Positions 48,060 to 54,187 of a stretch of 64,000 nt of DNA are shown here, one piece after another. Position 1 is the first letter of the stretch; each line of letters starts with the position of its first letter. The stretch is from Bdellovibrionales bacterium CG10_big_fil_rev_8_21_14_0_10_45_34. Lineage in GTDB: Bacteria; Bdellovibrionota; Bdellovibrionia; Bdellovibrionales; 1-14-0-10-45-34. The stretch covers positions 238,483 through 302,482 of the forward strand of contig PEZS01000001.1 in NCBI GenBank assembly GCA_002778785.1, written 5' to 3'. The notes beneath the pieces were generated by a model, which saw nothing but the letters and a program-made list of their open reading frames with translations, searched no databases and was not told the origin of the DNA. The position numbers were made by a program, and so were the translations under genes.

Positions 48060-49031
48060 TTGAAGTTAGCGAGTATGAAGTCGAGTTCGCGCGATGGTGA
48101 ATTGTTAGTCGTTAGTCGAGATCTCAAGAGAGCCGTTTCGGCTAAGACTATCGCTCCGAACTTACGTACTGCGGTTGAAACATGGAGCCAGTGCAAGACC
48201 GACCTTGAGTTAATTTCGAAGAGGCTTAATAGCAGCCAGATGGAAGCATCGTTTGAACTCAATATGTCGAGTCTTATGTCGGCACTTCCGCGAGCGTTTC
48301 AGTTTGCTGATGGGTCTGCTTTTCTAGAGCATGTAAGATTGGTGAGAAGGGCCAGGGGAGCTGAGCTTCCAGAGAAACTCTTAACAGTTCCACTTATGTA
48401 TCAAGGTGTTGGTGATAGATTTTTAGATCCCACGGAAGACATACCCTTTCAGGATCCTACCTTTGGGCTCGATTTTGAATCTGAGATATGTGTAATTACC
48501 TCAGACATCGCTCGTGGATCAGACGCAAAGAAATGTGAAGAGTCGATTCTTTTGTTTGTATTGATGAATGACATTTCGCTGCGAGGTTTGATTCCAGAAG
48601 AACTTTCACATGGTTTTGGTTTTTTTCAATCAAAACCACCCTCAGCGCTCTCTCCTATAGCGGTTACTCCCGACGAACTTGATGGACATTGGAGAGATGG
48701 CAAAGTTCATTTGCCGCTTCTGACTGACTACAATGGTGATTTTTTTGGCAATCCCGATGCAGGTTCAATGCACTTTCGGTTCGGTGACTTGTTGGCTCAC
48801 GCCGCAAGAACCCGCGATCTTCAAGCTGGGGTAGTGCTGGGTTCTGGCACTGTTTCGAATGAGGACCGCTCACGGGGGAGCAGCTGTCTTGCAGAGAAGC
48901 GAATGATTGAGCAAATCGAAAGTGGTAAACCTGTTACTCCTTTTATGAAGTCAGGAGACACAGTCGAAATCAAAATGCTTCTGCCAAACGGCGAAAACAT
49001 ATTCGGCACTATCAGACAGAAAGTTCGCTAA
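48060..49031 (+). CDS. Fumarylacetoacetase family hydrolase
   Basis: It cleaves fumarylacetoacetate to fumarate and acetoacetate, the last step of tyrosine breakdown. The 323-residue protein starts at TTG 48060 with AGGAGG five bases upstream. The metal-binding Glu pair lies in GLDFESEICVITSD, followed by FVLMNDISLRGLIPEE, FFQSKPPSALSPIAV (Lys) and GSGTVSNEDRSRGSSCLAEKRMIE. The last is typical of the bacterial two-domain fumarylacetoacetases. Maleylacetoacetate isomerase is encoded 4.5 kb downstream, which supports the assignment. Other FAH-superfamily reactions remain possible. Confidence 0.85.
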   Translation: MKLASMKSSSRDGELLVVSRDLKRAVSAKTIAPNLRTAVETWSQCKTDLELISKRLNSSQMEASFELNMSSLMSALPRAFQFADGSAFLEHVRLVRRARGAELPEKLLTVPLMYQGVGDRFLDPTEDIPFQDPTFGLDFESEICVITSDIARGSDAKKCEESILLFVLMNDISLRGLIPEELSHGFGFFQSKPPSALSPIAVTPDELDGHWRDGKVHLPLLTDYNGDFFGNPDAGSMHFRFGDLLAHAARTRDLQAGVVLGSGTVSNEDRSRGSSCLAEKRMIEQIESGKPVTPFMKSGDTVEIKMLLPNGENIFGTIRQKVR

Positions 49032-49132: not shown

Positions 49133-49753
49133 CTACCGATTGAAGACATTACCGCAGTTTTTTCCGCTTAACCCCAGGTTATATTTCCGGATCTCACCAG
49201 AATATAAAACCAGATCAGTATGGCTATCAAAAAGCTGCATTCTAGCACGCCCCTTGCCTATATCAAAAATCAGTTTTCCATATGAATCTTTCGGAAACCA
49301 TTGTACCGTAGCATTCTCAAATCCATACTCTCTTGCAAGCCGCTCAACTCTAAGTTTATCTTCCGCTTTTCCCTTATTAATTTTCTGACTCATTTCTCTC
49401 GCCCAGCTTTCGTGGCCTGGCTTACCTTTTATCTCAACCGAGGCCCCACCCGCAACGAAAAGCTCAATATCCTTTGCGCTACCAAAGATGCTCAGCAATT
49501 CTTCAAAAAAATACTTTCTCAGCGTTGATTCGACAGTATTGGAAACGTGAATCGCAAACGCACGCTTTGATACTCTGTGATACCCTATTAGTGCAAAACA
49601 GGGCCCAAGCATCCCAGAGTCGATAAGGCCATCCACAAAAAGGATTCCACTTCTATCTTGCTCAAGCTTGTATTTTTTTGAGGAAGCCAACGACGAAGAG
49701 GATGAAATCACTGCGAATATTATAAAAAAATAAGCCTTATGAAGCGCTCTCAT
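49133..49753 (-). CDS. Secreted protein with CheD-like catalytic site pattern
   Basis: The product is 206 residues from ATG 49753, where a signal peptide begins (MRALHKAYFFIIFAVISSS). The frame is open to 49996, but the extra part lacks coding character. Cys 52 (MLGPCFALIGYH) and His 69 (AFAIHVSN) are 17 residues apart, the same as Cys27 and His44 of Thermotoga CheD. Ser 46 occupies the place of CheD Thr21. VAGGASVEI (about 100-108) followed by a helix and ENATVQWFPKDSYGKLIFD echoes the CheD core. CheD normally deamidates chemoreceptor glutamines in the cytoplasm; an exported version would act on other targets. The fold call is inference. Confidence 0.55.
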   Translation of the reverse strand: MRALHKAYFFIIFAVISSSSSLASSKKYKLEQDRSGILFVDGLIDSGMLGPCFALIGYHRVSKRAFAIHVSNTVESTLRKYFFEELLSIFGSAKDIELFVAGGASVEIKGKPGHESWAREMSQKINKGKAEDKLRVERLAREYGFENATVQWFPKDSYGKLIFDIGKGRARMQLFDSHTDLVLYSGEIRKYNLGLSGKNCGNVFNR

Positions 49754-49910: not shown

Positions 49911-51185
49911 TCAAATATCCATAAGCAACCGACCGTCACCACTGTATGACCAATGTATCGCTTTAACGGCGGTTTTGACAGCCTTTCGCATACCATTTCT
50001 TTCTGCTTCTAGTATTCCCGATATAGGATCAACAAAAATTAATCGCATCAACATGGCTTCATCGTTCAGCGTTTTAATGGCGTCCGCTTTGTAAATGCGA
50101 TAGCGATCGTGTGTAATCCGATGATGAAGTTCAACCTCGGGGACTACCTTGTCCAGAAAATCGCCCCGGGTCTGCAGATAGTCCGCCAAATCATTGACCC
50201 TAAGGAAGTGGACATGCTTCTTGAACTTTTCATCCCAACGATTCTCTAATTCGGAGAACGCGCTCTTTTGCCTCAGGTGACTCGAGGCGAATGTCTTTAG
50301 GTCACTTAACGTACCTGTTTTCAATATATTCTCAACTTTATGCCAAAAACCAATTAGGCTGCGATAGTGCTCGATGACATCCGTTTGTCGAAGAAATGAT
50401 GCTAGCTGGGCTTGATAGAGTCCAGCTAGATTACGGTCTATAATTGCGTCACTATCATCTGGCTTATTGTCGAATACAATAGGCTGAATTTTACCATCAC
50501 CATAACCGTAGCGAGAAGCTCTTCCGCTAAACTTTGGCAGCTCGGCATGTTGAAAGGCAAAACGCTGTTTTGAATTGAAATCAGGCTCTCCATCTCGAAT
50601 AGCAGTATACAAAGAAAAAGAGGGAGCAAGGTCGTTTATAGAATAGACCAAGTGTGATTCTAAGTTCGGCCAGTACTCGACTGGAAACCGATCGCGAATT
50701 GCCCACGCAAGTGAAGCCTCAAACCCTAGATCGAAAAACAGAACCTTCTGACCAGCTTTTACAAGATCAACAGATAGTCCTTGGGACTCGAGATATTCGC
50801 CAAGCAATGGGTCATGAATTGTTACTCTATTTACATTCATCAATTGAATGGAATCGAGCTTGGAAGGTTCAGTAGCGTCTATCAGAATTCGAAGGGAATC
50901 GTAAAACACCTCGCCGTCGCGAGCTAGAAATAGAATTTTATGTTCACTGTAAAGCACAGACAAGAAAGCTGCAATTTCGACCATCATCGTAAACCTATCC
51001 CTGTCTGCAACTGATAGATTTTGCAAACTAACTGCCTGCGCTTCCAGCACGTCGGGATGGCTGTACGGTAAAGGCGCTTCCGCAACCGCCATTAGCGGGC
51101 AGGAAAGTAGAAGTATCCATATACATATAGTAGGTACGACCTTGGAAAGCAGTCGCAAGGTTATTGAACTTGTGTAAATAGTCAT
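49911..51185 (-). CDS. Exported protein with a FLARDG-type motif, unknown function
   Basis: This 424-residue protein begins with a signal peptide (about 1-36). Cleavage after AVA or lipidation at the Cys of LLSCP are both possible. Residues 83-98 (HKILFLARDGEVFYDS) and 147-160 (KVLFFDLGFEASLA), with NVNR at about 117-120 between them, resemble the paired motifs of PRTase- or HAD-like proteins found in polysaccharide loci. The C-terminal half is helical. It shares orientation with the CheD-like gene (about 160 bases apart), so the two may be co-expressed. Confidence 0.6.
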   Translation of the reverse strand: MTIYTSSITLRLLSKVVPTICIWILLLSCPLMAVAEAPLPYSHPDVLEAQAVSLQNLSVADRDRFTMMVEIAAFLSVLYSEHKILFLARDGEVFYDSLRILIDATEPSKLDSIQLMNVNRVTIHDPLLGEYLESQGLSVDLVKAGQKVLFFDLGFEASLAWAIRDRFPVEYWPNLESHLVYSINDLAPSFSLYTAIRDGEPDFNSKQRFAFQHAELPKFSGRASRYGYGDGKIQPIVFDNKPDDSDAIIDRNLAGLYQAQLASFLRQTDVIEHYRSLIGFWHKVENILKTGTLSDLKTFASSHLRQKSAFSELENRWDEKFKKHVHFLRVNDLADYLQTRGDFLDKVVPEVELHHRITHDRYRIYKADAIKTLNDEAMLMRLIFVDPISGILEAERNGMRKAVKTAVKAIHWSYSGDGRLLMDI

Positions 51186-53527: not shown

Positions 53528-54187
53528 GTGAAACTCTATTCTTATTTTCGTAGTTCAGCGGCATTTCGTGTTCGAATTGCCCTGAACCTAAAGCAGCTAA
53601 ACTGTGAAATCATTCCTGTCCATCTTGTGAAAAATGGAGGCGAACAGCACGCACCGGCTTTTCAGGTCTTGAGCCCTCGTGGTGAAGTGCCGTGTCTTGT
53701 TGATGGTGATGTGGTTTTGTCTCAGAGTATGGCAATACTGGACTACTTAGAATCGAAGTTTCCTTCTCCTAAGCTGACAGGGGCTACCTACCAAGAGCGC
53801 GCACGAGTAATCGAGCTCAGCGAGATGATTAATTCAGGAATCCACCCGGTTCAGAATCTGAAGGTTTTGCAAAAACTAGAGAAGGACTTCTTTAGCAAGG
53901 ATGAGCAGAAAGAATCCTGGGCTCGACATTGGATAGAAGATGGATTTACTGCTTTTGAAAAAAGGTTAGAGCAAAGTAGCGGCAAGTTTTGCGTTGGAGA
54001 CTCTATCAGTTGGGCAGATATCTATTTGGTGCCACAGGTTTTCAATGCAAAGAGATACAAGGTTAACATGGAGAAATTTCCGAAGATTGCAGACATAGAT
54101 AGTCGATGTATGCAGATGGCAGAATTTATTAAGGCGGATCCGATGCATCAGGTGGATACGCCATCAGAGTTAAAATCAAAGCCCTAA
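53528..54187 (+). CDS. maiA: Maleylacetoacetate isomerase (zeta-class GST)
   Basis: It isomerises maleylacetoacetate to fumarylacetoacetate using glutathione, one step before fumarylacetoacetase. The 219 residues start at GTG 53528. The N-terminal SSAAFRVRIALNL carries the catalytic Ser of zeta GSTs. QVLSPRGEVPCLVDGDVVLSQSMAILDYLE is the glutathione-binding thioredoxin fold, and the C-terminal part is all-helical (DSISWADIYLVPQVFNAKRY). The nearby fah gene makes the tyrosine pathway reading likely. Confidence 0.92.
   Translation: MKLYSYFRSSAAFRVRIALNLKQLNCEIIPVHLVKNGGEQHAPAFQVLSPRGEVPCLVDGDVVLSQSMAILDYLESKFPSPKLTGATYQERARVIELSEMINSGIHPVQNLKVLQKLEKDFFSKDEQKESWARHWIEDGFTAFEKRLEQSSGKFCVGDSISWADIYLVPQVFNAKRYKVNMEKFPKIADIDSRCMQMAEFIKADPMHQVDTPSELKSKP

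What the first reader, a model, noticed from the sequence alone, without database searches (positions are those of the whole stretch)
49133..49753. Exported protein with CheD-like Ser/Cys/His catalytic spacing
Seen: after a signal peptide, Cys 52 and His 69 are 17 residues apart with Ser 46 six before the Cys. Known: Thermotoga CheD uses Thr21, Cys27 and His44 (same spacing), and the related CNF1 toxins use a Cys/His dyad to deamidate host proteins. Inferred: this could be a secreted glutamine deamidase, which in a predatory bacterium might act in the periplasm or on prey proteins. CheD is normally cytoplasmic, so export would be new.
Basis: partly seen in the sequence, partly recalled or inferred. 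Interest (0 to 1): 0.72.

Follow-up and report, generated by a model that had tools for sequence, protein, structure and literature searches.

The report
Exported CheD/NTAN1-like cysteine hydrolase
The gene encodes an exported protein that is a very distant relative of enzymes that strip amide groups from proteins (CheD, NTAN1); a separate, clearer family of exported relatives exists across the same bacterial phylum, so this fold is repeatedly used outside the cytoplasm there, but what it acts on is unknown.

Summary
In detail: a real 206-codon minus-strand gene with a signal peptide and Ser46/Cys52/His69 at exactly the spacing of CheD (Thr21/Cys27/His44) and human NTAN1 (Ser69/Cys75/His92). 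The triad alone is weak evidence (5 of 338 unrelated ORFs have it), but profile comparison indicates real remote homology over residues ~38-105, beating 315 real ORFs (bar two true CheDs) and 200 shuffles. Both low-confidence AlphaFold models return CheD as best PDB match. The protein itself is an orphan: no relative in any collection searched. However, searching for NTAN1 exposed about 15 exported NTAN1/CheD-like proteins in the phylum (Bacteriovorax, Halobacteriovorax, others), all keeping Cys and His; their profile finds CheD (E 2e-6) and NTAN1 (E 1e-3) as its only significant PDB matches. So export of this fold is not unique to this gene. It is not a chemotaxis CheD: the genome has no detectable CheD and no chemoreceptors. 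Best reading: a periplasmic/secreted Cys-His-Ser amidohydrolase of the CNF1/YfiH-like fold, closest to CheD/NTAN1; deamidase activity is inferred, substrate (own envelope or prey) unknown.

The parts
49133..49753 (-). Gene for a 206-aa exported CheD/NTAN1-like protein (stop codon 49133-49135)
   Evidence: Open frame and translation; codon usage as in neighbouring genes
49685..49753 (-). Signal peptide, residues 1-23 (MRALHKAYFFIIFAVISSSSSLA), cleavage site inferred
   Evidence: Charge and hydrophobicity profile; no dedicated signal-peptide predictor was available
49445..49642 (-). Core matched to CheD/NTAN1-like profiles, residues 38-103 (Cys loop, beta hairpin with His, helix, strand ending in Gly-Gly)
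   Evidence: hhalign against exported family: score 37.0, P 2e-5; against CheD: score 27.3; order of secondary structure elements in two models
49616..49618 (-). Ser46, putative third triad residue (Ser69 in NTAN1, Thr21 in CheD)
   Evidence: Sequence; spacing as in PMC7022378
49598..49600 (-). Cys52, putative nucleophile, in LGPC (LGSC in CheD)
   Evidence: Sequence; aligned with the invariant Cys of CheD and of all 15 exported relatives
49547..49549 (-). His69, putative general base
   Evidence: Sequence; aligned with the invariant His of CheD and of all 15 exported relatives
49445..49450 (-). Gly102-Gly103 (VAGGAS), matching the GG of CheD and NTAN1 (LVGG)
   Evidence: Alignments
49911..51185 (-). 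Upstream same-strand neighbour, 424-aa exported protein, possible operon partner; no known family
   Evidence: Pfam negative; homologues in 15 other phylum genomes; operon relationship inferred only from strand and the 157-base gap

Best explanation
[quoted passage not shown] Cys52 would be the nucleophile, His69 would deprotonate it and Ser46 would orient His69, hydrolysing an amide, most likely the side chain of Gln or Asn in a protein. Shown here: the gene, the triad spacing, the hydrophobic signal, and statistically significant remote homology to CheD and to a family of exported NTAN1/CheD-like proteins. Inferred: the fold over the whole length, catalysis, that the reaction is deamidation, and the substrate (proteins of its own envelope, or of prey).
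For: hhalign against 15 exported family domains: score 37.0, probability 77%, P 2e-5, above all 315 unrelated ORFs (max 28.4) and 200 shuffles (max 20.5); against 32 CheDs: 27.3, exceeded only by two real CheDs left in the null. With residues 44-72 kept and the rest shuffled, 0 of 150 reach the exported-family score and 1 of 150 the CheD score; the triad alone gives 0 of 150. Foldseek of a single-sequence model: rank 1 is CheD 2f9z (E 0.14, prob 0.44), NTAN1 rank 9; of a five-sequence model: rank 1 CheD (E 0.058, prob 0.89), ranks 2-4 YfiH-family structures. The exported family's own profile finds CheD (E 2.4e-6) and NTAN1 (E 0.0013) in the PDB. All 15 family members keep Cys and His. Triad chemistry of NTAN1 and CheD: PMC7022378.
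Against: No Pfam, NCBIfam or PHROGs family matches. No homologue of the protein was found, so conservation of its own triad cannot be tested. Models are poor (pLDDT 42 and 44), TM-scores about 0.3. Profiles of the exported family do not reach it in a whole-genome HMMER search. It lacks residues invariant in that family (Gln and Glu of QxE, Asp after AHxD). YfiH-fold members include enzymes that are not deamidases, so the fold does not fix the reaction.
Confidence: 0.55

Rival explanations
1. The fold and homology are right but the protein is not a deamidase: it uses the Cys-His site for another hydrolysis (thioester, N-terminal amide, purine nucleoside chemistry as in YfiH/LACC1) or is a non-catalytic binding protein derived from such an enzyme.
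For: Foldseek ranks 2-4 are YfiH/DUF152 proteins; the wider set includes apparent Cys-less members, e.g. two neighbouring exported ORFs in L079 with Arg in place of the Cys; P0001 is very divergent and lacks other conserved residues of NTAN1-like relatives.
Against: All three triad positions are retained with exact spacing, which drift would not be expected to preserve; CheD and NTAN1, both deamidases, are the closest sequences; YfiH coordinates zinc at its site (PMC7022378) and no sequence match to YfiH was found.
Confidence: 0.27
2. It is simply the genome's CheD, working on chemoreceptors in the cytoplasm, with a mis-called start or a hydrophobic N-terminus that is not a signal.
For: The mature part begins where CheD begins relative to the Cys and has the CheD-like LG(P)C; no other CheD was found in the genome.
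Against: No methyl-accepting chemoreceptor is found in this complete genome, so the CheD substrate is absent; PF03975 does not match although it matches CheDs in 21 of 60 order relatives; a hydrophobic core with preceding positive charge lies ahead of the domain.
Confidence: 0.03
3. The resemblance is coincidence: an unrelated orphan exported protein that happens to carry Ser-Cys-His at the CheD spacing.
For: [ST]x5Cx16H occurs in 1.5% of unrelated ORFs; no family library matches; model confidence is low.
Against: Scores exceed all unrelated ORFs and all full shuffles, and nearly all shuffles that keep the motif; CheD comes first of 350,542 PDB chains for a model built without any alignment.
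Confidence: 0.12

Closest known systems
Exported NTAN1/CheD-like family of the same phylum (L064-L078; e.g. Halobacteriovorax marinus isolate L094, Bacteriovorax sp. L095 and L096); found here, not named in the papers searched
   Same: Signal peptide followed by a domain of similar length; Cys, His (16-17 apart), Ser/Thr six before the Cys, the helix and the Gly-Gly strand; hhalign P 2e-5. L069 (same order) also has Ser at -6 and GPC.
   Different: P0001 lacks the invariant QxE motif before the Cys loop, the Asp of AHxD and the conserved C-terminal RLxRHxDSxGGGD; HMMER does not link them at whole-genome level.
CheD chemoreceptor glutamine deamidase (PF03975; Thermotoga 2F9Z)
   Same: LG(S/P)C, Cys-x16-His, Ser/Thr at -6, GG strand, domain length; best PDB match for both models.
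   Different: Exported; genome without chemoreceptors or any PF03975 match; below detection by the Pfam model.
NTAN1 N-terminal asparagine amidohydrolase (PF14736; human 6A0E/6A0F)
   Same: Ser69/Cys75/His92 with identical spacings and Ser rather than Thr (PMC7022378); fold match (rank 9).
   Different: No QQRE, no TTC before the nucleophile, no appended C-terminal specificity region of NTAN1 size in a 206-aa protein; NTAN1 is a eukaryotic enzyme of the N-degron pathway.
CNF1/YfiH-like cysteine hydrolases in general
   Same: Same fold class suggested by YfiH-family hits at ranks 2-4.
   Different: No sequence similarity detected; no toxin delivery domains.

Membership tests
CheD (PF03975) | Match to the Pfam CheD model | tested here: not met
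   No match in hmmscan or in the genome-wide search
CheD (PF03975) | Thr/Ser-x5-Cys-x16-His with the Gly-Gly strand downstream | tested here: met
   Ser46/Cys52/His69 and Gly102-Gly103 aligned with CheD
CheD (PF03975) | Chemotaxis context with chemoreceptor substrates in the cytoplasm | tested here: not met
   No MCPsignal match in a complete genome; signal peptide
NTAN1 (PF14736) | Match to the Pfam N_Asn_amidohyd model | tested here: not met
   No match; no match in own genome
NTAN1 (PF14736) | Ser/Cys/His triad at spacings 6 and 17 | tested here: met
   compared with PMC7022378
NTAN1 (PF14736) | Substrate-contact residues: Gln51, Thr73/Thr74 and the appended C-terminal region | tested here: not met
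   QRE absent, GPC instead of TTC, protein too short for the appended region
Exported NTAN1/CheD-like family of the phylum | N-terminal signal plus Cys/His domain | tested here: met
Exported NTAN1/CheD-like family of the phylum | QxE, AHxD and C-terminal RxxRH-GGGD motifs; HMMER profile match | tested here: not met
[quoted passage not shown]
   CheD and YfiH structures top the Foldseek lists, but pLDDT is 42-44 and TM about 0.3
[quoted passage not shown]
   Needs an enzyme assay

The most novel reading that the evidence does not exclude
A secreted Gln/Asn deamidase of the CheD/NTAN1 lineage, recruited outside the cytoplasm by Bdellovibrio-like bacteria, that modifies proteins in the envelope or in prey; together with the exported family in Bacteriovorax relatives this would be a new extracytoplasmic protein-deamidation system.
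Probability: 0.15. Interest if true: 0.8.

Novelty: new variant of a known kind. Interest (0 to 1): 0.5.

Why it matters
CheD and NTAN1 work inside cells. Signal-bearing versions, one an orphan and one a conserved family in Bacteriovorax and relatives, point to protein deamidation, or some other Cys-His hydrolysis, outside the cytoplasm, with the candidate catalytic residues already identified for mutation. The family also offers a testable route (small, single-domain, mostly one cysteine) that the orphan alone does not.

Tried and rejected
Relatives of the protein itself: none in 99 order relatives and the class set (hits at E 0.02-0.5 are short, many with stops, and L002, inspected, holds no comparable ORF), GTDB contigs, IMG/VR, plasmids or phages. 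Pfam TibC_1st at E 0.09 is far below its cut-off and covers 24 residues. The fold of the single sequence is too poor to use alone. Searching the order with a mixed profile that contains P0001 (A7) returned only true CheDs, exported-family members and P0001 itself. CheD and exported-family scans of IMG/VR gave nothing; the exported family is not on plasmids. A link of the upstream neighbour's homologues to CheD-like genes was looked for and not found. Searches were errors or refusals, not results; only members fetched by the search for related loci were put into the second structure job. Literature: no paper held joins Bdellovibrio with NTAN1, and the one joining it with deamidase is a database paper.

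Full report
The gene. Window 49133-49753, minus strand, encodes 206 aa. Codon usage fits neighbouring genes and the other five readings score negative; the in-frame extension to an earlier ATG at 49996 scores as non-coding, so the start at 49753 is the better one. The N-terminus has the charge and hydrophobicity of a Sec signal peptide; no dedicated predictor was available, so the cleavage site after Ala23 is inferred.

Is the spacing more than chance? By itself barely: 5 of 338 unrelated ORFs of at least 150 aa carry [ST]x5Cx16H. The protein has no Pfam, NCBIfam or PHROGs match and no relative in the genomes of its order and class, GTDB contigs, IMG/VR, plasmids or phages. It is an orphan, so direct conservation of its triad cannot be tested.

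A bridge. NTAN1, the eukaryotic N-terminal asparagine amidohydrolase, has a Ser69/Cys75/His92 triad and is structurally closest to CheD, whose triad is Thr21/Cys27/His44 (PMC7022378). Both spacings equal that of P0001. Searching the phylum for PF14736 exposed proteins of about 200-290 aa with signal peptides; four tested by Pfam match N_Asn_amidohyd at E 8e-8 to 2e-3, two of them over the curated cut-off. A profile of six (A1) found 15 strong members in 369 phylum genomes; named ones are Halobacteriovorax marinus, two Bacteriovorax and a deltaproteobacterial MAG. All 15 keep Cys and His, 16 or 17 apart; Thr stands six before the Cys in 14 and Ser in one, L069, which like P0001 has GPC. A 13-member profile finds CheD at E 2.4e-6 and NTAN1 at E 0.0013, and nothing else below 0.2, in the PDB. 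N-terminal hydrophobic signal-like stretches are seen in 14 of the 15 with clear scores (L075 is uncertain because its start is unclear). Export of this fold is thus a likely family trait in the phylum, independently of P0001.

Does P0001 belong to the same superfamily? hhalign of the mature P0001 against the 15 domains scores 37.0 (P 2e-5), above 315 unrelated real ORFs (max 28.4) and 200 shuffles (max 20.5). Against 32 CheDs it scores 27.3; the only two null ORFs above it are real CheDs left in the null set (L036, L037). The match runs through the Cys loop, the His hairpin, the helix and the Gly-Gly strand. Because the protein was picked for its motif, a conditional null is fairer: with residues 44-72 kept and the rest shuffled, 0 of 150 reach the exported-family score and 1 of 150 the CheD score; keeping only the three triad residues gives 0 of 150 in both. 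The similarity is therefore not the motif alone. Against this, HMMER with the family profile does not find P0001 in its genome, and QxE, AHxD and the C-terminal family motif are missing.

Structure. A model from the single sequence has pLDDT 42 but its best PDB match is CheD (E 0.14, prob 0.44), with NTAN1 at rank 9. A model with four exported family members as alignment has pLDDT 44, CheD at rank 1 (prob 0.89) and YfiH-family structures at ranks 2-4. The second is partly biased by the alignment; the first is not. Confidence is too low for either to stand alone.

Not the chemotaxis CheD. The genome (completeness estimate 100) has no PF03975 match, though 21 of 60 order relatives do, and no MCPsignal match (the control genomes ring). 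The substrate of CheD is absent.

Mechanism. By analogy with NTAN1, where C75A and H92A abolish and S69A lowers activity about fivefold (PMC7022378), Cys52 would attack, His69 deprotonate and Ser46 orient. An amide of Gln or Asn in an extracytoplasmic protein is the most likely substrate; this, and any action on prey, are inferences. Whether the window's organism is a predator was not tested.

Context. Upstream on the same strand, 157 bases away, is a 424-aa exported protein with no known family; its homologues in 15 other phylum genomes are mostly larger exported proteins with variable C-terminal parts. Their loci show no CheD-like gene nearby. Flanking genes are ordinary (FAA hydrolase, trypsin-like protease).

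Verdict. Best described as a divergent, exported CNF1/YfiH-like cysteine hydrolase nearest to CheD/NTAN1: a new variant of a known kind.

Noticed in passing
L064-L078, L094-L097 (e.g. L096 3983-4597): A family of exported NTAN1/CheD-like proteins in the phylum (Bacteriovorax, Halobacteriovorax and others) with QREYI, QTYGVYTC, AHxD and RLYRHxDSxGGGD motifs; not found named in the papers searched. A better target than the orphan for structure and assays.
   Followed up: yes
L079, frames from 1000 and 1715 (+): Two neighbouring ORFs resembling the family around the His (ASMAHIDTKTD / ASMGHADTKTN) but with Arg where the catalytic Cys would be (TTESRI), possibly inactive paralogues.
   Followed up: no
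L085, minus strand from 1087: 298-aa exported-looking ORF with ADCVAVIGYNQETKQGFFAHI, a further exported Cys/His type in another family of the phylum.
   Followed up: no
window 49911-51185 (-); L099-L109: Exported family with YFLARDGELLYD and FVDTGFxGTIP motifs, no Pfam match, whose larger homologues have variable C-terminal parts (a kinase-like stretch in L099/L100, repeats in L102).
   Followed up: partly
whole genome G000: A genome of estimated completeness 100 in an order where CheD is common, with no detectable chemoreceptor (PF00015) and no CheD.
   Followed up: no
window 48060-49031 (+) and 53528-54187 (+): A fumarylacetoacetate hydrolase gene and a GST-like gene lie on either side of the finding; the second looks like maleylacetoacetate isomerase (name from sequence impression only).
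   Followed up: no
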